Shown piece by piece: positions 192-57,229 of a stretch of DNA of 64,000 nt. The stretch's first letter is position 1. Every line of letters begins with the position of its first letter. The notes beneath the pieces are model-generated. The model saw only the letters and a program-made list of their open reading frames with translations. It was not told where the DNA came from and made no database searches. Source of the DNA: Buxus sempervirens (Eukaryota > Streptophyta > Magnoliopsida > Buxales > Buxaceae); the NCBI GenBank assembly GCA_947561395.2, contig OX387182.1, positions 37,317,949-37,381,948 of the forward strand, given 5' to 3'. Position numbers and translations under genes: made by a program.

Positions 192-259
192 GTGTATCCG
201 GCCTTAGTTGCCGGATACACATAGGCCATAGGTGATCCGGCCTGAGTTGCCGGATCACC
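192..259. repeat. Pair of phased palindromes
   Basis: Two palindromes centred at 206 and 245, exactly 39 bp apart. The first has arms GTGTATCCGG/CCGGATACAC. The second has GGTGATCCGG/CCGGATCACC. The 9-nt loops are nearly identical (CCTTAGTTG and CCTGAGTTG). The different outer arm bases change on both sides together. This resembles the leader arrays at 42456-42597 and 57089-57229, of which it may be a shortened version. Confidence 0.85.
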
Positions 260-1600
260 TCAAAAATGGCCTTTTTGAGCTTCGGCCATTGGGGTGGCTT
301 CCAGAGGCTTCCTAGGGCTTTCTACTAGTCATGTGGGCGCTTGGGCAGGCCCACACTGGTTCAGGTTTGGGGAGAGGCCTCATTTGGCTTTTCTTTGGGA
401 CTTTTCCAGCAAGGACACAAAGAAGAGGGGGCATGAGAGTTGCTGCCCCCATTGCTTTTCTCACCAGGGCAACAGCAGCAAGGTAGGGGTCTTTGCACCC
501 CTACCCGGGTGTTTTCCCTTCATCCACCGATGGCAAGCCGAAACCCAGCAACCGGGCACGCTTTTCCTAGGATACCCTAGCACAAACACCAAGGTGGGAG
601 GCCATGGGACAGCAAAGAATAATAAAAACACAGGAACATACAACAGCCTACATGAGCCGATTTAATCATGCTAAGCGAGTGGAGGATACATGGGGATTAA
701 AGATACTCTTGCATGGCACTTTGGGGACTGATTTGAAAGGGCAAGCAAATGGGAATTTGCTGGGACAGCGGCCCTTTGGAGGGGGTTAGTATGCTCTCAC
801 GGGACTGGAAATTATGGACCATGGGGTTGGGGAGCATGGCAGCAAGGTCTTATGCTCATGGTACACGAATTTAAGCATACATGCAAGTTAAACCCATTGG
901 GAACAAGGAAAAGTGAGGGGTACGGCTGCTGCCAACAGCAGCTCCAAAATTCTCTGCATGCTTACTAAGGCTTGAGATGAGGGGCAAAGGGGTGGGGAAG
1001 CATGAACATGGGGTCCTTCTTCCCTGGTTCGAGCACCACCGGCCTGGTGGGCAAATCAACTTCACTAAAAAAAGAGATGGGGTGCTGCTGCCACTACCAA
1101 CAGCAACCCCAAAACAAACTTCACATACCTATTAGCTTGACACAAAAAGATAGATCATGCTCATATTCGAAGGAATCATGCTCCACACTCAATCATCATA
1201 CCAAGACATGCAAACATAGACCTTTCACCATCATTGAGCATGTTCAAAACAGCAACCTATTTGATAGGAAAATAAACCAACAAGAAGGGTGGAGAAAGGG
1301 GGGGTTTACAGGGGGTACACTGGATGAAACAAGAGAGGAACAAGCTCCTCTTGAGTTGGCTTAAGCATAATCAAAACAGCAACTTAATGGGACTAAAAAT
1401 GAGGTGGATTCTCTCCCACTCCCTCATGGAACCAAACGTGGGGTCTCTCTTACCCTTAGAGACCTCCATAGTACCAAAAGAGAGGAGAATGCATGCAAGT
1501 AGACATCCTTACCAGATTTATGCTAGGGAGAAGACAAGCTTTGAAAGATTTCCAGAAAAATCCCATTTTAATATATGTGTAAACAAATATGCCAAGGGGT

Positions 1601-1610
1601 CTTACCTGGT
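1601..1610 (-). promoter_or_regulatory. Candidate LTR leader splice donor
   Basis: On the minus strand the sequence reads CCAG|GTAAGA, a near-consensus 5' splice site about 300 nt downstream of the TATA box. Equivalent donors sit at matching places in the other Tat LTRs (53939/53940 on plus; near 23526, 37752 and 45931 on minus). Splicing is inferred. Confidence 0.4.
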
Positions 1611-1885
1611 GGTTCTTGGGTCCTTGGGTAATGTGGAAACACTCCCTTGAGGCTGGACAGCAACTAGAGCTCCACCTTTCGCAGCACCAACAGCAGCCAA
1701 GCTTTTTCTTGGTTAGGTGAAGATGGAGAAGGATGGAGGAGAATGGAGGAAGGAGGGGTGGAGCTGCCTTGGGGTGGTGGTAGGAAGGTGGTGGAGGCCA
1801 ATGGGTGTAGGAGAGGGAAGGTTCGGATGAGACGAAGTGGGGCAAGGAGGTCCAAGAAGGGTGGAATCAACCAACCATTGGAAAG

Positions 1886-1910
1886 GGGGCTGCTGCCCCC
1901 TTTTATAAAA
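1886..1910 (-). promoter_or_regulatory. TATA box with adjacent GC-rich stem
   Basis: The minus strand reads TTTTATAAAA, immediately followed by GGGGGC-AGCA-GCCCCC, a perfect 6-bp inverted repeat. The TATA box lies just downstream of the palindrome cluster in transcription order, so this is the likely LTR core promoter. Confidence 0.55.
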
Positions 1911-1918
1911 AAACTTAA

Positions 1919-2165
1919 TGTATCCGGACTTGGAGTCCGGATACACTATATATCATGTGTATCCGGACTTGGAGTCCGGATACACTAAGCTTCCTTTGTA
2001 TCCGGACTCGGAGTCCGGATACAAAACATAATAATTGGCAAAATTGAATTCCGCCGCGAATTTGTCGGAGAATCGACGCGAATCTCGCCGAGCAAATCTT
2101 CGTATCCGGCCTTGGAGTCCGGATATACATACGGGTACGTGTATCCGGTATATTTGACCGGATAC
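1919..2165. repeat. Five phased palindromes in LTR U3 (3+2)
   Basis: Three long-armed palindromes, with arms of about 12-14 bp and loops of 3 nt, are centred at 1932, 1971 and 2010. Two of the usual 8-9 bp arm type are centred at 2114 and 2153. Within each group the centres are 39 bp apart. The core is TATCCGG...CCGGATA throughout. The outer bases of the long arms differ between copies (GTG/CAC against TTT/AAA) but stay paired. Confidence 0.9.
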
Positions 2166-21719: not shown

Positions 21720-24039
21720 TGTGAGACACGGGAAAAAATCACCGGAATGATCATCCCTCCGTCAACACACGGGCCTCAATGTAAAAATTGGGAGAGTCGC
21801 CACCATTCAGATTTTGGGTGTGAATGGACACCAAAAGTTTAAAAATAAGCAAAAATAGCTAAAAGACAAATTCTAGGGTAAAAATAACCCTATTTGAAAA
21901 TCGAATCCAGAGATGGGTAAGGGGATTAGATTATGAACGGGGGAAGGTGTTAAGCACCCCCATTCATCCACACGAAGTGGTTGCCAAGTGTTTGTTCATG
22001 CTAAAAGAAAATAGAAAGCTTGCTAAAAAATCATGAAAACCTTGAAAAAGGACAAATATATGATATCTTCACATGAAAATCCAAATGAATTCCAGATCTT
22101 CTTTTATGTTAATATCACTTCTGGAATATCACAAAAAGATGGAAATCACAGCAAAAGTTGCACAAAACGAAGTTGAGGCAAATCCGGGAAATTTGGTAAA
22201 AAGTAAGGCTATTTCTCTTGAAATTAATCAAATCCAATTTTAAATTAAATCAAACCAAATCCATTTGAAAGATTAGGGTAAACAATAGTCTCATGCAAAA
22301 TTTCAATTAATTCCGGTTGAAATCCTAAGAGTTATGGCTCTTTTAAAGTTGCTGCCGGAGAAAATCAAAAGTAGCAAGTAGGCAAGTTCGGAAAATCACC
22401 TAGAAAAATCTACTCCATAGAAATCCGTGAAATTTGGTGTCAATGAAGTCTGTATGGCCATATTTCAAAAGAAACTAGCCTCATACAAAAACTCATTCGG
22501 ATGTGCCTTGGGTGGTCTCTCGAACAGGCCCCGAAGATCACACATTTACCCAGAAAAGTATTGATGAACAGTTCTAAGTAAATCCGTTACCAATAATTCA
22601 AATGGAGTTAAAAAATTATGAAACCAACTGGATTTGAAAATAGACTCATAAAGGAGTGATCAGAAACAAAAATCATTCGAATCGGACTTAAAACGAACAC
22701 ATGGCGCTCCGTCGAAGTGACAAGTTCTGTATTTAAACCTGAACTGTCCAATCAAATTCGACAGAGAGGTGTCAAAAATATGCTTGATAGAAATTAATGA
22801 AATTTGGTGGACATAAACTAGACAGCCTCACCTTTCCCATGGTTCTAGAATCGCTCCAAAATTCATCCGGACGATGAAGTTATGAGCGTCCGACGTAAGG
22901 GTACAGTTGCTGTCAAGCTAAGCCATTTTTGAGTAAAACCAAAGCAAAACTGTGACCAAGTGTGTGTAATTCGTGCAAAATGAACACAAAACCTTTAAAA
23001 ATCATTTAACAACATTCCAGAATTGATTGAGGCCATTTATTTGTGATTTATCACAATGAATGTAATAAATCCCCAAATGTGAGCCTATCTCGCCAAAATT
23101 GTGCTATGTATGTGCAAGTGTGAAAAATCATACAAGATCAATATAACAAGATAGCATGCATACATATTCATCAAAATAAGGTTTTAAAACAACCTAGGGT
23201 TCCGTTCCATTATTGTTTCCCTTTGTTCTCTCTCCCCGTTAAACACGGTTCTTCAAGATAATCATGGGGTACTTTGAATATGAAACGGTTTTCAGTCATT
23301 CAAAAAGGCTTTATGCTACATAGGTTCTAGCACTAGGGTCAATCCCCAGTCTCGTTTCTCCTAGATCCTGCCTTCACGTTTTACGGCTAGAGGGAGTCTC
23401 GAGATACTTTGAGCCGGGGAAGGATTTTCAGACACACAAAAAGGCCTTATTCTACAGAAAGGTAGAAGAAGAGATCTAGATCTAGAAATGTAAAGACAAA
23501 AATTAAAAAAGAGGTTTGAGGTTTACCTGGATTCTTGAAGCACTTCTGCAGCGGTTTCCCTCTTCTCTTGGAGCTCTTCTTGGCAAGAGTTAATGGCCAT
23601 TTGCTTAAGGAGGAGCCTCCTATTTATAGGCAAAGGTTAGGGTTAGGGTTGGTGAGAATGGTAAACATAACATAATGTCTATAGCCCACCAACCTTAATC
23701 CTAAGGCTATTTCCGAGATTTCCTCTCATTTAATGAGGGATATGATGGTAAAAGTGAAAAGCTCTCGGAAAACCCTAATTTTGAGCAAAACTTGTGTATC
23801 CGGTATATCAGGCCAGATACACAAGGACCTTAAGGTATCTGGCATAGAATACCGGATACGCTAAAGCTTTCTTGTATCCGGTATTTTGTACCAGATACAA
23901 AGAGGGGTACTTGTATCCGGACTGAGTTGCCGGATACAGGTAAAAACTTATTTTCTCCAATTTTTGTGCTGGCTTTCAAGGAGATAATGATTTTTGATGA
24001 TTATTGATCATTTTGACAGTGCAATTTGGGATGTCTACA
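21720..24039 (-). mobile_element. 3' LTR of element 2
   Basis: 2320 bp from TGTGAGAC to GTCTACA on the plus strand. It matches 44126-46456 closely. It contains the palindrome quartet (23795-23938), a TATA box in CCTATTTATAGG (near 23618-23629; minus strand) and the conserved splice donor (near 23526). Confidence 0.95.
23795..23938. repeat. Palindrome quartet in 3' LTR of element 2
   Basis: Centres at 23808, 23847, 23886 and 23925, exactly 39 bp apart. Arms are GTATCCGG/CCGGATAC with a few single differences, loops are 9 nt. The last loop is ACTGAGTTG, the CTGAGTTG type found at the same end of most arrays. Confidence 0.95.
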
Positions 24040-24056
24040 ATTGCCCCTCTTTGCGG
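24040..24056 (-). other. Polypurine tract of element 2
   Basis: The minus strand reads CCGCAAAGAGGGGCAAT directly before the LTR start TGTAGACA. Position and purine content fit a PPT. Confidence 0.7.
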
Positions 24057-24598
24057 GAACTGCGAAGCAGTGAGCTGCAAAGATTAGACAAGCCCAAATT
24101 GCACTCCCTTAAGCATGATTTGCTTGATTCAATTCAATTTTGTAAAAAACAATTTTTGGGTGAAGATTTGCCAAAAAGCCCTAACTTTAAGGGGGCATTT
24201 CTCCAAGAATTCTTAAATTCCACTGAGCTCTCGTGGCTATGAAGTGGATTTTAAGCCCGAAAATAGGATTTCTTGAAAACTGATTTTTTTATCAAACCAA
24301 GTTGAAAATTGAGTGGATATCTTCCCTTTTGACCAACACATTTCCCAGAGTTGTCCTAAATTCCACTGAGCTCTCGTGGCTGTGAGGTGGATTTTAAGGC
24401 AAAAATAGGATTTTGTGAGAAAATAGTGGACTTTGTATCACATTTTTGCTCTTTTCCTTTTTTTTCTCTTCCTTTTTCCCTTTTTTTTTCTTCTTCTTCT
24501 TTTTTTTCTTTTTCTTTCTTTTTTTTTTTCTTCTTTTTTCCTTTTTTCATTTCTTTTTCTCTTTTTTCCTTTTTTTTCTCTTCTTTTTTACTTTGCGT
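24057..24598. other. 3' UTR of element 2 with polypyrimidine block
   Basis: I see no gene. The phrase CCACTGAGCTCTCGTGGCT occurs twice (near 24220 and 24364) as part of a direct repeat of about 45 bp. Positions 24445-24590 are an almost pure C/T tract on the plus strand. It ends at the promoter palindrome of the antisense gene. Confidence 0.6.
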
Positions 24599-35210: not shown

Positions 35211-35956
35211 TATTGGAGTTTTTTTTTGGAAGCCGTGTTAGTTTGCAGAACAAACACTGCTTCAAAGGTAAGGGGAGTTTCCTCCCAATTGTTCAGTACA
35301 AATTTTTCTGGAGCAGGGGAAATAGGGAAATCCTGCTCCTCAAACCCAGAATCTGATGCCATCATCACCGGGTGGGTACTGCCCTTTTCTGCTACGGGGC
35401 CCAGTCCAGATATGACCTCATCTGGAATCTTTACTGCGGCCCAGTCAATGAATGGTAGCTCGTTGTCACTACCAGTTTTCTCGCCTTCAGTCATGGCGAA
35501 GAAAGCCCCCACATCTTCAGAGAAGTCTGTCCGCCGCTCTGGTTGTGGCCCAGGCCCATTTGATGCTTCCAGTATTGGAGATGGGTTGTATGGTTGCAAG
35601 GCCGAAACAAAAGGCTTTTGAAATGGGTTGATGTTGTAGTAGGGAGGCTTAGACTGGTCTATGGGAGGAGATATTTGGATTGTATAAGAGGGTTTTGGGA
35701 AGCTTTCCCTTAAATGAGGGAGTTTTCCTTTGCTTCTTTCCTCTCCTTCTTCATGCTTCATCCTCCTCCACCCTCTGGGCTTGAAGCCCAACCCTACTTT
35801 AGGGATCAGTTTCTTAGCCGTGATTGGCTCCACCATCCCCTGCAAATTGATTCCCAGGCCTTTCCCCTGGTGAAAGTGGTATTTTTCATCACTTTCTTCA
35901 CCATTTTCTCAGTAGTTGTTCATTTCCTTTCTTTTCTCTCACACCCCCCCAGGTAT
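35211..35956 (-). CDS. Element 2 protease-RT linker region
   Basis: The minus strand encodes the stretch found at 61900-62660 in element 3. GLGFKPRGWRRMKHEEGE is a basic G-patch-like segment. An acidic linker follows (FFAMTEGEKTG, LPFIDWAAVK, NNWEETPLTFEA). The family function of this linker is unknown. The region ends where the solo LTR has inserted. Confidence 0.7.
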
Positions 35957-38263
35957 GTAATTGTGAGACATGGGAAAATCACCGGTGTGATCATCCCTCC
36001 GTCAACACACGGGGCTCGAAATAAAAATGGGAGAGTCGCCACCATTCATGATTTTGGGGTGAGAATGGACACCAAAGAATTCAAAATAAGCAAAAAGAGC
36101 TAAAAAGCACATTCTAGGATAAAAATAACCCTACTTGAAAATCGAATCCAGAGATGGGTAAGGGGATTAGATTATGAACGGGGGAAGGTGTTAGGCACCC
36201 CCATTCATCCACACGAAGTGGTTGCCAAGTGAATGTTCATGCTAAAAAGAAAATAAGAAGCTTGCTAAAAATCATGGAAAAGCCTTAAAAAAGGAACAAG
36301 TGTATGATATATTCACATGAAGATCCAAATGGATTTTAGATCTTCTCTTATGTCAATATCACTTCTGGAATATCTCAAAAAATGGAAATCAAAACTCAAG
36401 TTGCTCAAAACCAAGTTAAATCAAATTCGGTAAAAAGTATGCCATTTGCCTTGAAATCATTCAAATCCAATTCTAAATTGAACCAAACCAAATCCATTTG
36501 AGAGATTAGGGTAAATAAGAGTCTCATGCAAAATTTCACTTCATTCCGATGAAAAATCTAAGAGTTATGCTTCTTTGAAGTTGCTGCTGGGGAGTTTTAA
36601 AAGTGGTAAGTGGGCAACTTTGGAAAATTGTCTAGAAAAATCCACTACATAAAAGTCCACGAAATTTGGTGTGATTGACGTTTGTATGGCCATCTTTCAA
36701 AAGAAACTAGCCTCATACAAAAATCCCTTCGGATGTGCCTTGGGTGGTCTCCCGAACAGGCCCCGAAGATCACATATTTACCCAGAAAAGTACAAATGAA
36801 CAGTTCTGAGTAAATCGGCTACCAATAATTCAAATGGAATCTAAAAATTATGAAACTAACTGGATTTGAAAATAGACTCATAAAGGAGTACTCAGAAACA
36901 AAAATCACTCGAATCGGACTTAAAACGAACACATGGCGGTCCGTCGAAGTGACAAGTTCTGTATTTGAACCTGAACTGTTCACTTAACTTCGACAGAGAG
37001 GTGTCAAAAATCCGTTTGATGGAACTTTATGAAATTTGGTGGAAATAAATTAGACAGAATCACCTTTCCCATGGTTCTAGAATCGCTCCAAAATTCATCC
37101 GGACGATGAAGTTATGAGCGTCCGAAGTAAGGGTACAGGTGCTGTCCAGTTAGGCCACTTTTGAAGAAAATCAAATCCGAAAATTTATAAAGTGTGTGAG
37201 ACTCGTGTGAGATGAATCCAAAACCTTTGAAAAACATTTAAAACACTCCAGAATTTGATTGAGGCCATTTATTGGAGATTTATCACAATGAATGTAATAA
37301 ATCCCCAAATGTGAGCCTATTCACCAAAAAAGTGTAATATGTGTGCAAGAGTGAAAAACCAAGCAAGATTAATACAACAACAGATCATGCATATAGATTC
37401 AACAGGATAGGTTCTAGCATAGCCTAGGGTTCCGTTCCATTATCGTTTCCCTCTGTTCTCTTTCCCCGTTAAACACGGTTCTTCAAGATAATCAAGGGTA
37501 CTTTGAATATGGAACGGTTTACAATCAATCAAAAAGGCCTTATGCTACATGGGTTCTAGCACTAGGGTCAATCCCCAGTCTCGTTTCTCCTAGATCCGCC
37601 TTCACGTTTTACGGCTAGGGGAGTCTTGAGATACTTTGAGCCGGGGAAGGATTTCCACGCATACAAACAAGGCTTTACACTACAGAAAGGTAAAAGAAGA
37701 GATCTAGATCTAGGAATGTAAAGACAGAAAATAAAAATAAAAGTTGAGGCTTACCTGAGTTCTGGAGGCGATTCCGCAGCGGTTTTCTTCTTCTCTTGGA
37801 GTTCTTCTTTGCGAGAATTCAAAACAAGAGTTGAGTTCCCTTTGCTTGAGGAGGAGCCTCCTATTTATAGGCAAAGACTAAGGTCATTGGTAGACACAAC
37901 TTAATGTCTAGAACCCCCCCAACCTTAACCCTAAGGTTATTTCCGCGATTTCCCCTCATTTAATGAGGGACATGATGGTAAAAGTGAAAAGCTCTCGGAA
38001 AACCCTAATTTTGAGCAAACTTAAAGGTATCCGGTATGTCAGACCGGATACACAAAGGCTTTAAGGTATCCGGTACATGGTACCGGATACATTAAGCACT
38101 GCTTGTATCCGGTACTTGTTACCGGATACGAAAAGGCCTGCTTGTATCCGGCCTGAGTTACCGGATACAGGTAAAAATTCATTTTTTTCCATTTCTGTGC
38201 TGGCTTTCAAGGAGATAGTGATTTTTGATGATTGTTTGTGCAATTTGGGGTGTTTACAGTAAT
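35957..38263 (-). mobile_element. Solo LTR nested in element 2, with 5-bp target duplications
   Basis: The LTR itself is 35962-38258 (TGTGAGACAT...GTTTACA), 2297 bp, flanked by GTAAT at 35957-35961 and 38259-38263. It has no internal region, so it is the product of LTR-LTR recombination. In several diagnostic words (for example GATTTTGGGGTGAGAATGG) it is closer to the LTR of element 3 than to the LTRs of its host element 2. It has its own palindrome quartet, TATA box and splice donor. Confidence 0.93.
38027..38168. repeat. Palindrome quartet in the solo LTR
   Basis: Centres at 38039, 38078, 38117 and 38156, exactly 39 bp apart. All four have perfect GTATCCGG/CCGGATAC arms. The last loop is CCTGAGTTA. 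This is the cleanest array in the window. Confidence 0.97.
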
Positions 38264-38816
38264 TGACTGTTTCGAATTGAAACGAGTGAAACGCAATCTT
38301 GTCAACAGTCAAGTCTACATTTATTAAGGGTACATCAGGTGACACGATGGGAGGCACCAAGTTTTCAGCTAGGACTGTTATCACCCTTTGCCCTCTTACA
38401 TATTTCACCCTCTGGTGGAGCGTGGATGGTATTGCCCTAGCCGAATGTATCCACGACCTCCTTAGGAGCAGATTGAAGGTTGTGGGTATATCCATCACCT
38501 CAAATGTGATGTTGAAGATATTCGGCCCAATTGTGACCGGCAGTTCAATCTCCCCGAGGGAGTGGGTCTTGGAGCTATCAAAAGCCCTCACTATCCTCCC
38601 ATTCTGCTTGATCTTTGACTGGTCCAGACCAAGCTTGGTAAAAGTGATTAACGGGCAAATGTTTAACGCCGACTCGTTGTCAATTAGTACTCGTGCAATC
38701 ATGCAGCCCTTACAAAGCACTGTGATGTGCAAATGGTCAACATGATAACACCCACCTGGGCTGATCTCACCCTCAGAGAAACTTATCACATTATGTGACA
38801 AGATTTGACCAACCAT
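38264..38816 (-). CDS. Element 2 aspartic protease region
   Basis: The minus strand encodes VLIDNESALNICP (active-site block, Tat DNG type with a change), then RIVRAFDSSKTHSLGEIELP and FNLLLRRSWIHSARAIPST, the second protease block. The same order occurs in element 3 at 61460-61860. The role in the family is polyprotein cleavage. Confidence 0.8.
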
Positions 38817-41240
38817 TTTGCCAAGTTGGTCTGGATCGATTGTCTAGGATACGTGTGCACTTTGTAGCACCCTTAACAATGCATCCCTGTGCTTTTCAGA
38901 ATTCAGCAAAAAGCCCAGTATTGAAATTTGGGCCGGGACCTTGTTCAGCTAATCCACAAGATTGAATTCACTTTTTTTTGATTATTTTTATGAGGTCTGC
39001 TGCCTCATTTTCTGCACCCTGGGGGGTGTCTTCTCCTATTTTTGCCTTTCCTTTATGTTTTCTTTTTTCTTCATTTTCTTTTTTTTCCTTTTCTACTTTT
39101 GTCTCCTTCTCTTTCTCTTCACTCCCTGCACATCTCCCTGACCTCGTCATGAGGTTCACCTCCTCCTGGTTCTGGTTCCTAACCACTGGAACCGTAGCCG
39201 TGATTCCCTCGCTGTAATTCCACGGTACAGCGGCCTCAGAATAGGCTAGTTTGGGGATGTTAACCACTAATGGCTGGAGTTTGGACCGGGATGTATGGGC
39301 CGGTTTAGGGATAGTGTGGGCTAGCTGAACATTTACAACAAAGGGCTGGAGCTTGGATTTTGTGGGGACAGAAGAAGTGATGGAAGCAGTAGTGGGGTCG
39401 AGGTTGACGACCAATGGAGCCTTGGACGGCTTGGATGGTGAATAAATGGGTGGACTGCAATTGAAGACCAATGGAGGCCTTGCAGTATTCATCTGGGCCA
39501 TAAGAGAGGAGACTCGGTTTAAAGAGGAGCTTATGTCCTCAGCAGCAGGATTATTTTTCTGGGAGACCATGTTGATCTCCTCTTCTTCCTTTTCTTGGAA
39601 AAATCGGACCTGGATCGTGGTCCCTACTGGAGCTATGAGTTGAGATGGGTCAAAGGCCCTTCTGGTAGTGGATATGGCAGTGATGGAGTTGGATGGGCCT
39701 GCCCCATTATGGTACGGCAGAGGGTTCTGCCCAATATCATTCCCGGACGGGGCTGGTGCAGCAGTGTTAAACACCAAGGCCTTCTGGTCCAACAAGTCCT
39801 GGACCGCGTGTTTCAACACCCAGCAGGCATCTGTAGAATGCCCCAGTGCACCCATGTGGAAGTCACAGGTGACCGCTGAGTCAAAATTCCTCCCCCTGGT
39901 GGCATTCGGGTTGGGCTCTTTCAGAGTCAAATACTCCCCTTTCAGCAGGGTTGGCAGCAGCTGGGACAGAGATATCGGGAGAGGCGTAAAGGCACGGTTC
40001 CTTCTTGTTGCTAACCAGGCCTCCCTCTCTTCCTTGGTAAAAGCCCTCCTTGGGTTTGCTGGTATGGAGTGGGAGAAATTGACATTCAGTGGGGGTCTGA
40101 TAAGACTGCTGGGCCTGTTGGGGTGTAGAGATGTTGACGTGGAGCGGCTTCTTGGCTGGAGGAGCCTGGACTAGATTTAATTCTTCTTTTCGGGCCCCGT
40201 TCTTCTTGAACCCGGTTCCCTTCTTCTGGGCCATGGATGTAGAGGAATCAGACTGCCCAGTCAGAGTAGAGTAGTCTATCAGCCTTCCTGACCTGACCCC
40301 TTCCTCGATCCGGTCCGCTACCTGTACCAGGGCTGCAAAGTTGGTGGTGATCTGGTCCACCAGATGGTTGTAGAAAGGCTGCCCCAGTGTGCTCATGAAT
40401 GTTGAAATCATTTCCGGCTCCTGCATAAGCGGCCTGACCTGGGAGGCGGCCTCTCTCCACCTCTTGGCATATTGCCGTACCGGCTCATCTTTCCCTTTAC
40501 TCATCCTCATCATGCCGTACCGGTCTAGCACGATCTCAAAGTTAAACTTGTATTGATCCAGGAACGCGTCAGCCAAGTCCTTCCACCTCCTGATCCTTCC
40601 ATGGTCCACTGTCGCGAACCACCTAAGAGCTGACCCGGTCAAACTCCTCTGGAAGAATTGGATTAATATGCCGTCATCCCGGCCAAACTGGCATAGGGCC
40701 CCGCAGTATAATTTTAAGTGGCTCATAGGGCAGCCTGTGCCGTCGAATTTGTCGAAGTCCGGGCACTTGAACTTGGCCGGTAGGCATATGTCTGGATACA
40801 TGCATAGATCCTCGAAAGTGGTGCCTCCATAGCTGTTTCCCCCTTTACTTCCTTCAGCTCTTCCTGGATCCTTTCTATCCTGAGTAGCATCTTCTTTTCC
40901 ATCTCTTCTCTGGCCTTTTCCTTCTCCAGTTCGTTCTCGGATTCTGCTGTATTTTCCCTGATAAGAATGGGTTCAGGGACTGGTTCAGACATGGGCTCAG
41001 GCATGGGTTGAGCCGGAGGCGGCATGTAGGCCTGAGGTGGTGGTGCCTGATGGGAGGTTGACGCTTGATTTTGGGCTTGAGCCTATTGGGCTTGAGCCGC
41101 CAGTAGGTCTCCCAGCATCTTGGCCAGACCAGCCACCTGCTCTTGCAGCTGAGCAAAGTCCTGAGCAGGGATAGTAGCTTGGGCTTGGTTCTCTTCAGAG
41201 TTCATGGCTTTGGCTTTGGATCTGGTCATGGGAGCAATGG
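38817..41240 (-). CDS. Element 2 gag region
   Basis: Read from the right, a Pro/Gln-rich start (QLQEQVAGLAKML, then PAQPMPEPMSEPVPEP) is followed by a charged coiled coil (EKEKAREEMEKKMLLRIERI). The retrotransposon-gag capsid domain comes next: FKCPDFDKFDGTGCPMSHLK, LTGSALRWFATVDHG, DAFLDQYKFN, YAKRWREAASQV. A zinc-knuckle-like CDFHMGALGHSTDACW lies near 39860. A lysine/glutamate-rich tail ends near 38970. The role is the virus-like particle shell. It is broken in a few places. Confidence 0.8.
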
Positions 41241-41300
41241 CTACAAATAATTGTACCTGGGTTGCAAGTAAATGTACCTGGGAAAAAAAATTAACAGAAC
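41241..41300 (-). promoter_or_regulatory. Candidate splice acceptor before gag of element 2
   Basis: The minus strand reads GTTAATTTTTTTTCCCAG|G, a pyrimidine tract and AG shortly upstream of the gag start. Element 3 has ATTTTTGTCACTCAG|G at the equivalent place (58881). With the LTR donor this would remove the whole leader. Confidence 0.45.
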
Positions 41301-41372
41301 ATGTTAGCTTCCATTTAACTTGAGTCATACCCCTGTAGACAAGTAGGTTAGGTGAACACCAATCTAGATTTG

Positions 41373-42170
41373 TTTTTTTTTTTTTTTTTTTTTTTTGTGT
41401 TGGAATATTTTAGGGCTTCCAAGGGTCCCAAAAATTTTTTTGATTTGATTGGTACGAAAAAGACCAACCAAGGGTTTTTTATGGAATATTTTAGGGCTTC
41501 CAAAGGTCCCACTTTTTTTTGACTTCATTGGTACGAAAAAGACCAACCAAGGGGTTTTATGGAATATTTTAGGGCTTCCAAAGGTCCCACTTTTTTTGAC
41601 TTGATTGGTACGAAAAAGACCAACCAAGGGTTTTTATGGAATATTTAGGGCTTCCAAAGGTCCCACAATTTTTTGATTTGATTGGTACGAAAAAGACCAT
41701 CCAAGGTTTTTTATGGAATATTTTAGGGCTTCCAAAGGTCCCACTTTTTTTGACTTGATTGGTACGAAAAAGACCAACCAAGGGTTTTTTATGGAATATT
41801 TTAGGGCTTCCAAAGGTCCCACAATTTTTTGATTTGATTGGTACGAAAAAAACCAACCAAGGGTTCATGGAATATTTTAGGGCTTCCAAGGGTCCCAAAA
41901 TTTTTTTGATTTGATTGGTACGAAAAAGACCAACCAAGAGTTTTTTATGGAATATTTTAGGGCTTCCAAAGGTCCCACTTTTTTTGATTTGATTGGTACG
42001 AAAAAGACCAACCAAGGGTTTTTATGGAATATTTTAGGGCTTCTAAAGGTCCCACAATTTTTTGATTTGATTGGTACGAAAAAGACCAACCAAGGGTTCA
42101 TGGAATATTTTAGGGCTTCCAGAGGTCCCACTTTTTTTGGATTTGATTGATAAAAATAATCAACCAAGGT
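41373..42170 (-). repeat. Leader tandem repeat of element 2, about 78-bp unit
   Basis: A T24 run (41373-41396) leads into about nine to ten copies of a roughly 78-bp unit. Each unit contains GATTGGTACGAAAAAGACCA, GGAATATTTTAGGGCTTCCA and a T tract of variable length. Copies differ mainly in T-tract length and a few bases. The array lies between the leader palindromes and gag. Frames that run through it are an effect of the repeat. Confidence 0.9.
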
Positions 42171-42455
42171 TTTTTCTTATTTTTTTTTTCAAATTTGCTG
42201 AATTTTCTCAGTTTTCAAGTTCAAAAGTTGATTGACACATGTTTGAATTGAATTGATATAAAAAAATATGACACCTTAGCTTGTTCTTTGAGTTTCAACA
42301 TTATGTTTAATCTTAAAGGAATATATATTTTTTTATTTTTATTTTTTTTAGACATTTTTATATTTTCTTTGGGGTGCCTAAGGATTATCCACAGTGTTTA
42401 AGCATTTTATTTTGAAAATTCGGGCTGAAAAAGCCAATTTATTCATTTTCTGCAT

Positions 42456-42597
42456 GTATCCGGCATTAAGTGCCGGATAAGCATATGTCTTATCGTATCC
42501 GGCAACAATGACCGGATACACACATAAGCCTTTGTATCCGGCAATATATACCGGATATGAAGAAAATTATTCTTAACCGGCCTGAGTTGCCGGTTAA
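42456..42597. repeat. Palindrome quartet in the leader of element 2
   Basis: Centres at 42468, 42507, 42546 and 42585, exactly 39 bp apart. The first three have TATCCGG-type arms. The fourth has TTAACCGG/CCGGTTAA with the loop CCTGAGTTG, so both arms changed together. Confidence 0.95.
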
Positions 42598-44104
42598 TGC
42601 CGAAATGGCCATTTTGACTCATTTTTTCACCAGATTAGGTTTTCTTCATTCTCACTTGATGTTCACCTTAACTTGACCTTCAAAACTTGCCCCAAATTGG
42701 GCTTGGACATCATACTTGCAAAATTCCCCAAATTCATGAAAAGAACATGGCTTTACTCTGCCACCTTGTATTACCTTCATTCAATATGGTATTCACATTA
42801 TACCTTAGCCTGTAAAACATGCAAACGGCCTTCCCTCATTTACACCCAATTCCCCAAACGCAATTGTGTGCTTTTAGCTGAAAACGTGTTTCTCCACCTT
42901 CAAGCGTATGGTTTTTGGGTTTTGGCTTAATTGGCAACTTAGAACTCAAGTCTAGTGATGCCCGGAATTGAATCACAGATCCCATTGTCATCATATCATT
43001 GACTCAAATTCTAAGGTAAATATTTTCACTTTCGCTTTCCGAAGTCACGACCTCGGTGCGCCAAGCTACACACATTCATGGTTCAACTTCCTATAGGTAA
43101 TGGGTAGGCTGTGCAAATAGTTTAAAGTGCTCAAGTGCAATTTAAAATTGAGGTAACATTCACAACGTCCCAGCCCCTTGCTACTCTTTTTCGTAGCCAT
43201 GCATTCAATTTCAAGCCAAGGCACATATGACAATATAATGAAGCTAAATACAAGCAAGCAAGAGAACCAAAGCAACCAAATATGCACAAAAATATTACAT
43301 GCCCAAAAAGTGGTATACGAACATGTTATTTGGTGCAAACAACAATTAAACCATGGAAGCATGCTTGAAACCCAAAAGCATTCCCTAAAATTCCAGATTT
43401 TCATGCTCTTTTTTATGCTCAAAGTGTACCATTTCTACCCAAGTTGAAGCCTAAAAATTTTAGCAACTACTTGACATGGTCCAAAAGTGTTTCAATTAGG
43501 TAAAACATACTTGAAATCTCCCCCGAAATACACTCAAATTTCCAGATTTTTCATGCTCAAAAGTGCATCACTCATACCCCAAATTAATGGCTAAAAATTT
43601 AGCAACTACTTGACATGGTATAAGGAGAGTTTTGATGGTAAAAACATGCTTGAAAACCTCCAAATTAACTACTGAATTCCAGATTTCATGCTCATGGTTT
43701 TCATGCTCAACTCATGTCCTCCTATACCCCCAAATCAAAGGCATGGCATAATAAAAAATTTAAGCACAAGAAAGCATGCTTCATGGGAATCATGTTTGAA
43801 TACCCCAAAAATTCTGAACTCCTAGATTTCATGCTTCTAATTCTCATGTTCAAACCATGGTATTAAAAATTCAAATTAGAGCATGTTACACCAAATGCAT
43901 CAAAATCATGCTTCAAGATAGGCTTTTCTTAAATCAATCTCTAGGCAACATCAAACAACACATACATGCCTTTGTCCATAGAAATTCCAAAGCATCCTAA
44001 TCAGATTTAAAATACCACAATATGCACAATAAAATAAGCAAAATAGCAAGTATTCAAAAATAAGTAAAAGGCATGAATATACTCAAAATGGCTTAAATCC
44101 ACAA
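42598..44104 (-). other. Leader of element 2 between PBS and palindromes
   Basis: About 1.5 kb that aligns with 55730-57085 of element 3. It is AT-rich. Words such as AGCAACTACTTGACATGGT and GCATGCTTGAAA recur several times (43440-43870), so this part is built of degenerate internal repeats. It contains the small conserved frame at 43066-43197. No gag-type protein is encoded. Confidence 0.7.
43066..43197 (-). CDS. Small conserved leader frame of element 2
   Basis: A frame of 43 codons from MATKKSSKGLGR to RKLNHECV and stop. Element 3 has the same start, the same basic KKS(S/G)KGLGR segment and the same KLNHECV end at 56481-56618, although the middle differs in length. No domain is recognised. 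Some Ogre elements carry an extra ORF upstream of gag. Whether this is its remnant is unknown. It could also be conserved only at the DNA level. Confidence 0.35.
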   Translation of the reverse strand, partial: ATKKSSKGLGRCECYLNFKLHLSTLNYLHSLPITYRKLNHECV

Positions 44105-44123
44105 GTCCCCAGCAGAGTCGCCA
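44105..44123 (-). other. Primer-binding site of element 2
   Basis: The minus strand reads TGGCGACTCTGCTGGGGAC two bases after the LTR end. The leading TGG fits pairing with a tRNA CCA end. From memory, Ogre-type elements use a tRNA-Arg primer with such a site. The tRNA identity was not checked. Confidence 0.8.
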
Positions 44124-44125
44124 GT

Positions 44126-46456
44126 TGTGAGACACGGGAAAAAATCACCGGAATGATCATCCCTCTGTCAACACACGGGGCTCAATGTAAAAATTGGGAG
44201 AGTCGCCACCATTCAGATTTTGGGTGTGAATGGACACCAAAAGTTTAAAAATAAGCAAAAATAGCTAAAAGACAAATTCTAGGGTAAAAATAACCCTACT
44301 TGAAAATCGAATCCAGAGATGGGTAAGGGGATTAGATTATGAACGGGGGAAGGTGTTAAGCACCCCCATTCATCCACACGAAGTGGTTGCCAAGTGTTTG
44401 TTCATGCTAAAAGAAAATAGAAAGCTTGCTAAAAAATCATGAAAACCTTGAAAAAGGACAAATATATGATATCTTCACATGAAAATCCAAATGAATTCCA
44501 GATCTTCTTTTATGTTAATATCACTTCTGGAATATCACAAAAAGATGTAAATCACAACAAAAGTTGCACAAAACCAAGTTGAGGCAAATCCGAGAAATTT
44601 GGTAAAAAGTAAGGCCATTTCTCTTGAAATTAATCAAATCCAATTTTAAATTAAATCAAACCAAATCCATTTGGAAGATTAGGGTAAACAATAGTCTCAT
44701 GCAAAATTTCAATTAATTCCGGTTGAAATCCTAAGAGTTATGGCTCTTTTAAAGTTGCTGCCGGAGAAAATCAAAAGTAGCAAGTAGGCAAGTTCGGAAA
44801 ATCACCTAGAAAAATCTACTACATAGAAATCCGTGAAATTTGGTGTCAATGAAGTCTGTATGGTCATATTTCAAAAAAAACTAGCCTCATACAAAAACTC
44901 ATTCGGATGTGCTTTGGGTGGTCTCCCGAATAGGCCCCGAAGATCACACATTTACCCAGAAAAGTACTGATGAACAGTTCTGAGTAAATCCGTTACCAAT
45001 AATTCAAATGGAGTCAAAAAATTATGAAACCAACTGGATTTAAAAATAGACTCATAAAGGAGTGCCCAGAAACAAAAATCATTTGAATCGGACTTAAAAC
45101 GAACACATGGCGCTCCGTCGAAGTGACAAGTTCTGTATTTAAACCTTAACTGTCCAATCAACTTCGACAGAGAAGTGTCAAAAATCTGCTTGATAGAAAT
45201 TAATGAAATTTGGTGGACATAAACTAGACAGCCTCACCTTTCCCGTGGTTCTAGAATTGTTCTAAAATTCATCCGGACGATGAAGTTATGAGCGTCCGAC
45301 GTAAGGGTACAGTTGCTGTCAAGCTAAGCCATTTTTGAGTAAAACCAATGCAAAACTGTGACAAAGTGTGTGTAATTCGTACAAAATGAACACAAAACCT
45401 TTAAAAATCATTTAACAACATTCCAGAATTGATTGAGGCCATTTATTTGTGATTTATCACAATGAATGTAATAAATTCCCAAATGTGAGCCTATCCCGCC
45501 AAAATTGTGCTATGTATGTGCAAGTGTGAAAAAACATACAAGATCAATATAACAAGATAGCATGCATACATATTCATCAAAATAAGGTTTTAAAACAACC
45601 TAGGGTTCCGTTCCATTATCGTTTCCCTTTGTTCTCTCTCCCTGTTAAACACGGTTCTTCAAGATACTCATGGGGTACTTTGAATATGAAACGGTTTTCA
45701 GTCATTCAAAAAGGCTTTATGCTACATAGGTTTTAGCACTAGGGTCAATCCCCAGTCTCGTTTCTCCTAGATCCCGCCTTCACGTTTTACGGCTAGAGGG
45801 AGTCTCGAGATACTTTGAGCCAGGGAAGGATTTTCATACACACAAAAAGGCCTTATTCTACAGAAAGGTAGAATAAGAGATCTAGATCTAGAAATGTAAA
45901 GACAAAAATTAAAAAAGAGGTTTGAGGTTTACCTGGATTCTAAAAGCACTTCCGCAGCGGTTTCCCTCTTCTCTTGGAGCTCTTCTTGGCAAGAATTCAA
46001 GGCAAGAGTTAATGGCCATTTGCTTAAGGAGGAGCCTCCTATTTATAGGCAAAGGTTAGGGTTAGGGTTAGTGAGAATGGTAGACACAACATAATGTCTA
46101 TAGCCCACCAACCTTAATCCTAAGGCTATTTCCGAGATTTCCCCTCATTTAATGAGGGATATGATGGTAAAAGTGAAAAGCTCTCGGAAACCCTAATTTT
46201 GAGCAAAACTTGTGTATCCGGTATATCAGGCCGGATACAGAAGGACCTTAAGGTATTCGGCATAGAATACCGGATACGCTAAAGCTTTCTTGTATCCGGT
46301 ATTTTGTACCGGATACAAAGAGGAGTACTTGTATCGGGTCTGAGTTGCCGAATACAGGTAAAAACTTATTTTCTCGAATTTTGTGCTGGCTTTCAAGGAG
46401 ATAATGATTTTTTATGATTATTGATCATTTTGACAGTGCAATTTGGGGTGTCTACA
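44126..46456 (-). mobile_element. 5' LTR of element 2
   Basis: 2331 bp, the partner of 21720-24039. In transcription order it has U3 with the palindrome quartet, then the TATA box (GCCTATAAATAGG, near 46030-46042) followed by AGGAGCCTCCT, then the splice donor CCAG|GTAAAC near 45931, and then about 1.8 kb to the LTR end. The expected start of the element RNA is about 30 bp after the TATA box. Confidence 0.95.
46214..46355. repeat. Palindrome quartet in 5' LTR of element 2
   Basis: Centres at 46226, 46265, 46304 and 46343, exactly 39 bp apart. A few arm bases have diverged from the consensus, but spacing and 9-nt loops are unchanged compared with the 3' LTR copy. Confidence 0.95.
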
Positions 46457-50690: not shown

Positions 50691-50715
50691 ATTTAACTTC
50701 TATATTACCTCAAAG

Positions 50716-53436: not shown

Positions 53437-53526
53437 TGTAGACACCCCAAATTGCACAAACAATCATCAAAAATCATTATCTCCTGGAAAGCCAGCACAG
53501 AATTTGAAGAAAATAAACTTTTACCT

Positions 53527-53668
53527 GTATCCGGATTGAGTATCCGGATACAAGTACCCTTTCCCGTATCCGGATAGTCATACCGGATACGTGTGAGCCT
53601 TAGCGTATCCGGTACCATGTACCGGATACCTTAAGGCCCTTTGTTATCCGGTCTGATATACCGGATAC
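53527..53668. repeat. Palindrome quartet in 5' LTR of element 3
   Basis: Centres at 53539, 53578, 53617 and 53656, exactly 39 bp apart, arms GTATCCGG/CCGGATAC (TTATCCGG in the fourth). It lies about 160-290 bp upstream of the TATA box. Confidence 0.97.
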
Positions 53669-53824
53669 CTTAAGTTTGCTCAAAATTAGGGTTTTCCGAG
53701 AGCTTTTCACTTTTACCATCATGTCCCTCATTAAATGAGGGGAAATCGCGGAAATAACCTTAGGGTTTAGGTTTGAGGGGTTCTAGACATTAATTTGTGT
53801 CTACCAATGACCTTAGCCCTTGCC

Positions 53825-53842
53825 TATAAATAGGAGCCTCCT
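53825..53842 (+). promoter_or_regulatory. TATA box and stem of element 3 LTR
   Basis: TATAAAT (53825-53831) is followed at once by AGGAG-C-CTCCT (53832-53842). The same layout is found in all four 2.3-kb LTRs. Confidence 0.75.
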
Positions 53843-53930
53843 CCTTGAGCAAATGGGACACAACTCTTGTTTTGAATTCTCGCAAAGAAGAACTCCAAGA
53901 GAAGAAGGAAACCGCTGTGGAATCGTCTCC

Positions 53931-53947
53931 AGAATTCAGGTAAGCCT
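53931..53947 (+). promoter_or_regulatory. Candidate leader splice donor of element 3
   Basis: GAATTCAG|GTAAGCCTC with the exon edge at 53939. About 110 bp after the TATA box, so the first exon would be roughly 80 nt. The donor core is conserved in the other LTRs. Pairing with the acceptor at 58881 would give an intron of about 4.9 kb. Confidence 0.5.
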
Positions 53948-55708
53948 CAACTTTTCTCTTTATTTTCTGTCTTTACATTCCTAGATCTAGATCTCTTCTT
54001 CTACCTTTCTGTAGTGTAAAGCCTTGTTTGTATGTGTGGAAATCCTTCCCTGGCTCAAAGTATCTCAAGACTCCCCTAGCCGTAAAACGTGAAGGCGGAT
54101 CTAGGAGAAACGAGACTGGGGATTGACCCTAGTGCTAGAACCTATGTAGCGTAAGGCTTTGTGATTGATTGTAAACCGTTCCATATTCAAAGTACCCTTG
54201 ATTATCTTAAAGAGAACAGAGGGAAACGATAATGGAACGGAACCTTAGGCTATGCTAGAACCTATTTTGTTGAATCTATATGCATGTGTATGGATCTTGC
54301 TTGGTTTTTTTCACTTTTGCACACATATCACTATTTTGGCGGGATAGGCTCATATTTGGGGTTTATTGCATTTATTGTGATAAAACTCAAATAAATGACC
54401 TCAATCAAATTCTGAAATGCCTTTCGGATGATTTTAAAGTATTTGTGTTCATCTTGCACGAATTTCATTTTTATCAATTTTCGGACTTGGTTTTACTCAA
54501 AAGTGGCTTAGCTTGACAGCACCTGTACCCCTACTTCGGACGTCCGTAACTTCATCATCCGGATGAATTTTGGGGCGATTCCAGAACCATGGGAAAGGTG
54601 AGGCTGTCTAGTTTATGTCCACCAAATTTCATGAATTTCTATCTAGCCGATTTTTGACACTTCTCTGTCGAAGTTAAGTGGACAGTTCAGGTCCAAGTAC
54701 AGAACTTGTCACTTCGACGGACCGCCATGTGTTTGTTTTAAGTCCGATTCGAGTGATTTTTGTTTCTGAGTACTCCTTTATGAGTCTATTTTCAAATCCA
54801 GTTGGTTTCATAATTTTTGGATTCCATTTGAATTATTGGTAGCCGATTTACTCAGAAATGCTCATTTGCATTTTTCTGGGTAAATCTGTGATCTTCGGGG
54901 CCTGTTCGGGAGACCACCCAAGGCACGTCCGAAGGGATTTTTGTATGAGGCTAGTTTCTGTTGAAAGATGGCCATACAGACTTCAATCACACCAAATTTC
55001 ACGGATTTCTATGTAGTGGATTTTTCTAGACAATTTTCCAAAGTTGCCCACTTACCACTTTTAAAAATCCCCAACAGCAACTTCAAAGGAGCATAACTCC
55101 TAGATTTTTCATCGGAATGAAGTGAAATTTTGCATGAGACTCTTGTTTACCCTAATATTTCAAATGGATTTGGTTTGGGTCAATTTAGAATTGGATTTGA
55201 ATGATTTCAAGGCAAATGGTATACTTTTTACCAAATTTTCCGAATTTGATTTAACTTGGTTTTGAGCAATTTGTGCTTTGATTTCCATCTTTTGAGATAT
55301 TCCAGAAGTGATATTGACATAAGAGAGGATCTAAAATCCATTTAGATCTTAATGTGAAAATATAACACATTAATCCTTTTTCAAGGTTTTCTATGATTTT
55401 AGCAAGCTTTCTTACTTTATTTTTGCATGAACATACACTTGGCAACCACTTCGTGTGGATGAATGGGGGTGCCTAACACCTTCCCCCGTTCATAATCTAA
55501 TCCCCTTACCCATCTCTGGATTTGATTTTCAAGTAGGGTTATTTTTACCCTAGAATGTTTCTTTTGGCTATTTTTGCCTACTTTTGAATCTTTGGTGTCC
55601 ATTCTCACCCCAAAATCATGAATGGTGGCGACTCTCCCGTTTTTGCGTTGAGCCCGTGTGTTGACGGAGGGATGATCACTCCGGTGATTTTTTCCCATGT
55701 CTCACAAC

Positions 55709-55727
55709 TGGCGACTCTGCTGGGGAC
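55709..55727 (+). other. Primer-binding site of element 3
   Basis: TGGCGACTCTGCTGGGGAC, two bases after the LTR end. Identical to the site of element 2. Confidence 0.85.
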
Positions 55728-57088
55728 TTGTGGATTTAAGCCTATTTGTGTATATTCATGCTTTTTCATCACTTTTGAATGCTTGCTATTTTGTTTACTT
55801 TATTGGTGTATATTGGTGTATTCTAAATCTGATTGGGATACTTTTAAATTCTACATTGATGAAGGCATGTGTGTATGCTTGGATATGCTAAGGATCATGT
55901 TTAGGGCCTTACCTTGTTGTGCATGCCTACTTGTTTTTGTTTGCCTTGGGTTAGGAGGTTTTTAGTGCCATGATTTGAGCATGAAAACATTGAGCAAAAA
56001 TCTGTAAATACAGTAGCCATTAGGATGGTTTTCAAGCATGTTTTATCTCATTAAAACACTTTTGTATCATGTCAAGTAGTGGCTAAATTTTTAGGCATTA
56101 ATTTGGGGTATAAGGGAAGCACTTTTGAGCATGAAAATTCTAGAAATTTCAGTGTATATTTGAGGGTTTTCAAACATGTTTTACCTCATTAAAACACTTT
56201 TGAACCATGTCAAGTAGTGCTAAAATTTTAGGCTCCAATTTGGGTAGAAATGGTACACTTTGAGCATGAAAAAGAGCATGAAATCTGGGATTTTAGGGAA
56301 TGCTTTTGAGTTTCAAGCATGCTTACATGATTTGATGGTTGTTTGTACAAATGACATGTTTTGTATAACACTTTTTGGGCATGTAATATTTTTTGTGCAT
56401 ATTTAGTTGTTTTGGTGCTTGCTTGCTTGTATTTAGCTTCATTATCTTTGTCATTTGTACCTTGGCTTGAAATTGAATGCATGGCTACGAAAAAGAGTGG
56501 CAAGGGGCTGGGACGCTATGAATGTTACCACAATTTTAAAATTGCACTTGAGCACTTGAAACAATTTGCACAGCCTACCCTTTTACCTATTAGGAAGTTG
56601 AACCATGAATGTGTGTAGCTTGGCGCACCGAGGTCGTGACTTCGGAAAGCGAAAGTGAAAACATTTACCTTAGAATTTGAGTCAATGATGTGATGACAAT
56701 GGGATCTGTGATTCGATTCCGGGCATCACTAGACTTGAGTTCTAAGTTGCCAATTAAGCCAAAACCCAAAAACCATACGCTTGAAGGTGGAGAAACACGT
56801 TTTCAGCTAAAAGCACACAATTGCGTTTGGGGAATTGGGTGTAAATGTGGGAAGGCCGTTTGCATGTTTTACAGGCCAAGGTATAGTGTGAATACCATAT
56901 TGAATGAAGGTAATACAAGGTGGCAAGGTAAAGCCATGTTCTTTTCCTAAATTTGGGGAATTTTGCAAGTATGATGTCCAAGCCCAATTTGGGGCAAGTT
57001 TTGAAGGTCAAATTAAGGTGAACATCAATTGGGAATGAAAAAAATCAAATCTGGTGAAAAAATGAGTCAAAAAGGGCCATTTCGGCAA
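55728..57088 (+). other. Leader of element 3 between PBS and palindromes
   Basis: Aligns with 42598-44104 of element 2 in the opposite direction. It has repeated GACATGGT/TCAAGTAGTG and AAACATGTTTTA words (56030-56230). It is noncoding except for the small frame at 56481-56618. Confidence 0.7.
56481..56618 (+). CDS. Small conserved leader frame of element 3
   Basis: 45 codons, MATKKSGKGLGRYECY...RKLNHECV. The counterpart of 43066-43197 in element 2: both ends are the same in protein, the middle is different, and the overall length differs by a multiple of three. An upstream in-frame ATG (56361) would lengthen it with a hydrophobic segment. No domain is recognised. Confidence 0.35.
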   Translation: MATKKSGKGLGRYECYHNFKIALEHLKQFAQPTLLPIRKLNHECV

Positions 57089-57229
57089 TAACCGGCAACT
57101 CAGGCCGGTTAATAACAGCTCTAATCATATCCGGTACATATTTCCGGATACAAAGACATATGCGGATATCCGGTTAGATTGACCGGATACAATAAGGCAT
57201 ATTCTTATCCGGAATAATATACCGGATAC
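57089..57229. repeat. Palindrome quartet in the leader of element 3
   Basis: Centres at 57100, 57139, 57178 and 57217, exactly 39 bp apart. The first has TAACCGG/CCGGTTA arms with the loop CAACTCAGG, the reverse complement of the CCTGAGTTG loop in element 2. The others have (A/T)TATCCGG arms. Confidence 0.95.

What the first reader, a model, noticed from the sequence alone, without database searches (positions are those of the whole stretch)
192..57229. Palindromes phased at exactly 39 bp, in quartets, at ten places
I count 36 copies of a palindrome with 8-bp arms (GTATCCGG/CCGGATAC) and mostly 9-nt loops. Centres are 206, 245; 1932, 1971, 2010; 2114, 2153; 23808, 23847, 23886, 23925; 24611; 28669, 28708, 28747, 28786; 38039, 38078, 38117, 38156; 42468, 42507, 42546, 42585; 46226, 46265, 46304, 46343; 53539, 53578, 53617, 53656; 57100, 57139, 57178, 57217. 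Every neighbouring pair within a group is 39 bp apart, and seven groups have exactly four members. Loops and 14-bp spacers vary while arms and spacing do not, so this is not a simple recent tandem repeat. Each palindrome is two inverted TATCC boxes. TATCC/GGATA is a known target of plant one-repeat MYB proteins, so a phased multi-dimer binding platform is one idea. A hairpin in RNA is another. I know of no description of such an array.
Basis: partly seen in the sequence, partly recalled or inferred. Interest (0 to 1): 0.88.

Follow-up and report, generated by a model that had tools for sequence, protein, structure and literature searches.

The report
Phased palindrome arrays in plant retrotransposons
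Large plant jumping genes in this stretch carry sets of evenly spaced mirror-image DNA sites, several of them next to sense and antisense promoters; they are probably docking sites for a paired regulatory protein and offer a way to ask how these elements switch their genes on.

Summary
In detail: 36 palindromes at the stated centres, all with 9-nt loops, and 25 of 25 within-group intervals exactly 39 bp. They belong to Tat-type Ty3/gypsy retrotransposons with antisense plant-mobile-domain (PMD) ORFs: one complete element (21720-46456), a solo LTR nested in it, and parts of two more. The "ten places" are mostly copies by descent of a few positions: LTR U3, leader, antisense promoters.

Three of 11 arrays end 8-13 bp before a TATA box; four homologous LTR arrays end 157-168 bp before one; leader arrays have none close by. 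Between lineages the arms hardly change, while loops and spacers change faster than fourfold-degenerate codon sites. Between the two LTRs of one insertion the arms instead changed fastest, mostly C-to-T. So the arms were probably selected while elements were active. The half-site occurs almost only paired (51 of 52).

Best reading (0.62): a phased platform for a symmetric DNA-binding protein co-regulating sense and antisense promoters. The protein is unknown; a self-encoded, VANC-like regulator is the boldest reading not excluded. RNA hairpins are the main rival, with some covariation in their favour. No plant genome was searchable, so nothing was tested beyond this window.

The parts
194..257 (.). 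two palindromes, leader-like position of left-edge element E4 (limits of E4 inferred)
1920..2022 (.). three palindromes in the presumed LTR of E4; nearly identical loops
1902..1907 (-). TATA box 13 bp from the edge of the E4 array
2102..2165 (.). two palindromes in the presumed LTR of E4
21720..46456 (-). element 1 (E1), complete Tat-type element; LTRs 21720-24039 (3') and 44126-46456 (5'), CCCCC on both outer sides
23796..23937 (.). quartet in the 3' LTR of E1
24599..24623 (.). single palindrome before antisense ORF2
24631..24636 (+). TATA box 8 bp from the single palindrome
26044..27012 (+). antisense ORF2 region, PMD (PF10536)
28657..28798 (.). quartet before antisense ORF1
28811..28816 (+). 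TATA box 13 bp from the antisense ORF1 quartet
28816..29820 (+). antisense ORF1 region, DUF7745/PMD
35962..38258 (-). solo LTR of a relative inside E1, GTAAT on both sides
38027..38168 (.). quartet in the solo LTR; TATA 158 bp from its left edge
42456..42597 (.). quartet in the leader of E1
46214..46355 (.). quartet in the 5' LTR of E1; TATA 167 bp from its left edge
53437..55706 (+). 5' LTR of element 2 (E2); E2 runs past the right edge of the window
53527..53668 (.). quartet in the 5' LTR of E2
53825..53830 (+). TATA box 157 bp from the E2 LTR quartet
57088..57229 (.). quartet in the leader of E2

Best explanation
The arrays are cis-acting DNA platforms of plant Tat-type retrotransposons. 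Each palindrome offers two inverted GTATCCGG half-sites to a symmetric, probably dimeric, DNA-binding protein. Usually two to four such sites at 39-bp pitch form one operator or enhancer. The same platform stands before the sense promoter in the LTR, before the promoters of the antisense PMD genes, and inside the leader, so one factor could set the element's sense and antisense transcription together. Shown: positions, pitch, pairing of half-sites, closeness of three arrays to TATA boxes, and the pattern of conservation. Inferred: that a protein binds, that it is a dimer, and that the effect is on transcription (activation or de-silencing rather than repression is a guess). Unknown: whether the protein is the host's or the element's own.
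For: Half-sites occur as pairs: 51 of 52 exact copies. 25 of 25 spacings are 39 bp. TATAWA boxes, in the direction that reads away from the array, lie 8, 13 and 13 bp from the edge in 3 of 11 arrays; chance per array 0.019, P for 3 or more of 11 = 0.001. Between lineages arms change less than the rest (E1, with changes found in only one of its LTRs left out, against E2, plus leaders: 3/128 against 455/3517, p = 6e-5), and loops plus spacers change more than fourfold sites (35/78 against 104/516, p = 6e-6; leaders 28/78, p = 0.003). Between the two LTRs of E1 arms changed more than the rest (6/64 against 54/2175, p = 0.006), 5 of 6 changes being C-T or G-A, with the other LTR and both relatives at consensus each time: the arms are mutable, yet kept between lineages.
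Against: The leader arrays (3 of 11) have no close TATA box: 94 and 129 bp in E1, none within 250 bp in E2 and E4. Seven of the arrays are related by descent, so lineages are few. Single LTR pairs, arms against whole-LTR background, give only p = 0.06 and 0.09. Lack of gaps in arrays is not significant in single pairs (chance 0.18-0.36). Other LTR patches also diverge strongly (up to 0.32 in 40-column windows near alignment column 1260; arrays reach 0.34). Changes on both arms together in three units are not what independent half-sites predict. No binding protein, expression or methylation data.
Confidence: 0.62

Rival explanations
1. Hairpins in RNA or single-stranded cDNA: the palindromes work as stem-loops in the element's genomic RNA or leader, for example in packaging, dimerisation, translation or strand transfer.
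For: Both-side changes that keep pairing: 5 cells at 3 of 8 pairs, 0 of 500 shuffles reach the cell count and 6 of 500 the pair count; pairs kept 96.3% against 93.3%. Five arrays folded are far more stable than shuffles (z -7.7 to -11.9). By position all arrays of E1 would lie in its full-length RNA (inferred). The quartets keep one strand orientation within the element although promoters face both ways.
Against: The both-side changes come from three units (245, 42585, 57100), two of them homologous, and could arise by copying one arm from the other. Five of 36 units do not pair at the outermost position. In the five predicted folds many arms pair with arms of other units and differently in each array. 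The 8-13 bp distance to antisense TATA boxes and the constant 39-bp pitch have no ready reason in RNA. The z-scores follow from palindromy itself.
Confidence: 0.2
2. No function: arrays are old tandem repeats inherited with LTRs and leaders, and palindromes are kept perfect by copying of one arm from the other or by exchange among units.
For: The quartets are homologous across copies; 1920-2022 looks like recent tandem duplication; LTR and internal quartets look related by unit; symmetric arm changes occur.
Against: Arms 1/64 against loops plus spacers 35/78 in the same units (solo against E2, p = 2e-10). Exchange of whole units would not leave arms alone unchanged unless they are also selected. 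Repair of one arm by the other did not keep arms intact in E1 after insertion (6/64).
Confidence: 0.1
3. A version of the best explanation in which the binder is a host one-repeat MYB that reads TATCC.
For: TATCC is present in 60 of 72 half-sites. That such MYBs bind TATCC or GGATA is recalled.
Against: The conserved unit is GTATCCGG, CCGG being kept in 64 of 72 and G7 and G8 in 70 and 72 of 72; leader units 42585 and 57100 have TTAACCGG or its near form in place of TATCC.
Confidence: 0.08

Closest known systems
VANC-target motif arrays of Arabidopsis VANDAL transposons (PMC5735166, passages; PMC10398659, abstract)
   Same: Many copies of a short site in non-coding parts of a plant transposable element; target regions that diverge rapidly while the motif is kept; several places per element.
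   Different: VANC21 motif is YAGTATTAY, arrayed in one orientation in tandem repeats of a DNA transposon; here inverted pairs of GTATCCGG at fixed pitch in an LTR retrotransposon, and no binding protein is known.
Antisense accessory genes of Retand and Grande elements (PMC11963269, abstract and passages; PMC7264820, passages)
   Same: Antisense genes between pol and the 3' LTR; Grande gene23 is transcribed from its own promoter; Retand TRP28 is predicted to bind DNA and suggested to regulate.
   Different: Here the antisense ORFs match PMD and DUF7745. In the passages seen, those papers describe tandem repeats but no phased palindromes at promoters.
Arabidopsis PMD proteins MAIN and MAIL1 and the DOWN motif (PMC7156037, passages)
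   Same: PMD proteins linked to a promoter motif and to transposon silencing.
   Different: Host genes; direct DNA binding is not stated in the passages seen; the motif's letters were not seen, so no comparison was made.
Tnt1-family U3 regions of Solanaceae (PMC1838419, passages)
   Same: Fast-evolving regulatory U3 of a plant LTR retrotransposon.
   Different: Copia type; no palindromes or phasing in the passages seen (the terms palindrom and tandem do not occur in its text).
TnpA sites at the ends of maize En/Spm (recalled, no call)
   Same: Repeated short sites in both orientations bound by an element-encoded regulator.
   Different: DNA transposon ends; other site and spacing.

Membership tests
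Tat-type plant Ty3/gypsy retrotransposons (carriers of the arrays) | Reverse transcriptase, a second RNase H-type domain and integrase in one pol | tested here: met
   RVT_1, RT_RNaseH/RT_RNaseH_2, RVT_3 and rve in 31623-35237
Tat-type plant Ty3/gypsy retrotransposons (carriers of the arrays) | Antisense ORFs between pol and 3' LTR | tested here: met
   PMD and DUF7745 ORFs on the strand opposite to pol in E1
Tat-type plant Ty3/gypsy retrotransposons (carriers of the arrays) | Position in a reverse-transcriptase tree | not tested
   no tree built
VANC-like anti-silencing target array | Motifs arrayed in one orientation at high density | tested here: not met
   half-sites are inverted pairs
VANC-like anti-silencing target array | Motif kept while the surrounding target region diverges rapidly | tested here: met
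   arms against loops and spacers
VANC-like anti-silencing target array | Bound by an element-encoded protein that removes DNA methylation | not testable with these tools
   needs binding and methylation data
Functional RNA hairpins | Covariation that keeps pairing, beyond relatedness | tested here: inconclusive
   excess over shuffles from three units, two homologous
One-repeat MYB (TATCC) sites | Conservation centred on TATCC | tested here: not met
   whole GTATCCGG conserved; TATCC 60/72, CCGG 64/72

The most novel reading that the evidence does not exclude
A plant LTR retrotransposon runs its own regulatory circuit: an antisense PMD gene encodes a symmetric DNA-binding factor whose phased palindromic operators stand before the sense LTR promoter, before the antisense promoters and in the leader. 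It would be a retrotransposon counterpart of VANC anti-silencing, with loops and spacers turning over fast, perhaps to escape RNA-directed silencing, while the arms stay fixed.
Probability: 0.22. Interest if true: 0.88.

Novelty: new variant of a known kind. Interest (0 to 1): 0.66.

Why it matters
The job of the antisense genes in these giant plant retrotransposons is open: the two papers seen offer only a possible regulatory role (PMC11963269, PMC7264820). A shared array before the LTR promoter and before the antisense genes gives a concrete bait for finding the binding protein and asking whether the element encodes it. Arms that stay fixed while loops and spacers outrun fourfold sites are an unusual signature that can be tested in any plant genome that carries the family.

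Tried and rejected
Own-genome scan: no genome is held for the window. Viral-contig scan for the single palindrome: 8 loci, one exact site each; in the stretches held, none has a second unit (up to 5 mismatches) 39 bp away. Genome contigs (prokaryotes) scan for two exact units at 39-bp pitch: 0. No plant collection was available.

Structure of the antisense ORF1 stretch 28927-29640 from a 4-sequence alignment: mean pLDDT 41.9, not used and not searched. PDB sequence search with it: 0 matches up to E = 1.

Loop inversion as the cause of fast loops: in 4 of 16 homologous loop pairs the inverted match is better than the direct one (two involve unit 4 of the E2 LTR, 5 of 9 against 0 of 9); too few to claim. 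Pairing inside loops: p 0.08 to 0.72. Palindromy of spacers: p 0.054 at best of seven pairs. Escape from small RNAs: the longest run shared by three LTRs is 11 bp in the array and up to 49 bp elsewhere, but 11% of equally long windows elsewhere also have no longer run; kept as an idea. The fourfold yardstick (E1 against E2) is not apt for solo against E2, though one search printed it. The bacterial promoter and terminator scan does not apply to a plant and was not used.

Literature: eight searches were answered. I saw no description of such arrays in their listings, which were capped (15 of 674 papers, 8 of 1,086, 15 of 46, 12 of 33, 8 of 10); the library holds open-licence papers only.
Full report
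OBSERVATION. Searches recover the 36 palindromes at the listed centres, all with 9-nt loops. 19 of 36 have both arms exact, and 100 shuffles of the window give none (recount). 25 of 25 intervals within groups are 39 bp. The half-site is almost never alone: of 52 exact copies 51 are in these palindromes, one is at 4312, and about 1.3 are expected from base composition.

WHERE THEY ARE. Self-comparison, flanks and domain searches give this anatomy. Element 1 (E1) is complete, 21720-46456, in minus orientation. Its LTRs are 96.7% identical and CCCCC stands on both outer sides. It has gag (39881-40972), pol with reverse transcriptase, two RNase H-type domains and integrase (31623-35237), and antisense ORFs matching the plant mobile domain (PMD) or DUF7745 (26044-27012; 28816-29820). 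A solo LTR of a relative with GTAAT on both sides sits inside it (35962-38258). Element 2 (E2) starts with its LTR at 53437-55706 and runs in plus orientation past the right edge. A fourth element (E4) lies at the left edge; its limits are inferred from resemblance only. Another Tat-type fragment (ORFs from 3379 to 15068) has pol and PMD antisense ORFs but no palindrome of this family with fewer than 4 arm mismatches; its antisense promoter region (15000-16000) was also read by eye. The name Tat is recalled and rests on domain content; no tree was built.

The seven quartets therefore stand for three positions: LTR U3 (E1 twice, solo, E2), leader (E1, E2) and antisense ORF1 promoter (E1). A single unit stands before antisense ORF2, and E4 has three plus two units in its presumed LTR and two in a leader-like place.

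PROMOTERS. TATAWA boxes that read away from the array lie 13 bp (antisense ORF1), 8 bp (antisense ORF2) and 13 bp (E4) from the array edge, and 157, 158, 167 and 168 bp in the four homologous LTRs. A box within 15 bp on either side has chance 0.019 per array; three or more of 11 has P = 0.001 (arrays are not all independent). Leader arrays lack a close box: in E1 the nearest are 94 and 129 bp away on the sense strand; in E2 and E4 there is none within 250 bp. That these boxes are used is inferred.

EVOLUTION. Homologous LTRs and leaders were aligned and split into arms, loops, spacers and the rest. E1 5' LTR against E2: arms 4/64, loops 21/36, spacers 14/42, rest 288/2120. Solo against E2: 1/64, 16/36, 19/42, 177/2113. 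Leaders: 2/64, 14/36, 14/42, 167/1397. No gap falls inside an array in the seven comparisons, against 4-26 gap openings in the rest; for the six between-lineage comparisons zero gaps in 142 columns has a chance of 0.18-0.36 each, so this is weak alone. Fourfold sites between E1 and E2 differ at 50/263 in the part of pol compared and 54/253 in gag. Loops plus spacers exceed them (35/78 against 104/516, p = 6e-6; leaders 28/78, p = 0.003). Arms fall below the rest (pooled 3/128 against 455/3517, p = 6e-5; three changes seen in only one LTR of E1 are left out of the 3). Single LTR pairs, arms against rest, give only p = 0.06 and 0.09. In 40-column windows the array reaches 0.34 mean difference, but another patch of the LTR reaches 0.32, so the array is not the only fast stretch.

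The two LTRs of E1 should have been identical at insertion (general knowledge). Between them arms are the faster class, 6/64 against 54/2175 (p = 0.006). Five of the six changes are C-T or G-A, and each time the other LTR, the solo LTR and E2 keep the consensus. Arms with CCGG thus mutate readily in a resident copy, as methylated cytosines would (inferred), and yet are kept between lineages. This is the best sign here that the arms were selected while elements were active. It rests on six changes in one pair.

RECOGNITION. In 72 half-sites A3 and G8 are invariant and the other arm bases are at 57-70 of 72; outside, the fifth base before the arm is T in 54/72, and the loop side prefers T or C, then A, then T (59, 41 and 44 of 72). 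Half-site centres are 17 bp apart within and 22 bp apart between palindromes (arithmetic). The variant GTTTCCGG occurs twice, both times as a palindrome with CCGGAAAC, in E4 at 87-111 and 2353-2380. Comparing three LTR quartets with three internal quartets, loops match best at the same unit at the two ends (unit 1 4.78 of 9, unit 4 5.0; unlike units 2.3-4.4), but not at units 2 and 3 (3.67 and 4.00). The quartets may thus descend from one, kept on the same strand of the element although LTR and antisense promoters face opposite ways.

RNA ALTERNATIVE. Changes on both arms that keep pairing occur in 5 cells at 3 of 8 pairs; no shuffle of 500 reaches the cell count. They come from units 245, 42585 and 57100, the last two homologous. 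Five of 11 arrays were folded: all are far more stable than shuffles (z -7.7 to -11.9), as palindromes must be, but many arms pair with other units and differently in each array. I rank RNA or cDNA hairpins second (0.2).

KNOWN SYSTEMS. VANC21 of VANDAL transposons binds a nine-base motif arrayed in one orientation (PMC5735166, passages); VANC-target regions diverge rapidly (PMC10398659, abstract). Retand elements have antisense genes whose TRP28 domain is predicted to bind DNA (PMC11963269, abstract and passages), and Grande gene23 has its own antisense promoter (PMC7264820, passages). Genes lowered in main and mail1 mutants share a promoter motif (PMC7156037, passages). Tnt1-family U3 evolves fast (PMC1838419, passages). 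In eight answered searches (several listings capped) I saw no description of phased palindromes in Tat elements.

VERDICT. A phased platform for a symmetric DNA-binding protein that ties together sense and antisense promoters is the most likely reading (0.62). The self-encoded version (0.22) and the MYB version (0.08) are special cases of it, not additions to it. It resembles VANC targets in fast turnover around a kept motif but fails their same-orientation feature and is not claimed as a member.

Noticed in passing
87-111 and 2353-2380: Two more palindromes with the variant half-site GTTTCCGG (11- and 9-bp arms), one in each part of the left-edge element; the only copies of that 8-mer in the window.
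   Followed up: partly
24634-24659 and 1882-1903: GC-rich palindromes directly after, and overlapping, the TATA boxes of antisense ORF2 and of the E4 LTR.
   Followed up: no
41401-42175 and 57750-58654: Related tandem arrays of about 77-bp and 71-bp units in the leaders of E1 and E2.
   Followed up: no
21458-21721, 46456-46780 and 52825-53426: The DNA on both sides of E1 resembles the DNA just left of E2 (80% and 92%), so E1 sits in a second copy of that sequence.
   Followed up: no
14080-14105: A run of 26 C inside the antisense PMD ORF region of the left Tat-type fragment, where open frames overlap.
   Followed up: no
46694-46939 and 53332-53420: Short tandem units of about 23 bp containing CCACCAAGC in the flanking non-element DNA.
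   Followed up: no
35210-35908: The ORF before pol in E1 has a weak G-patch match (E = 6e-5).
   Followed up: no
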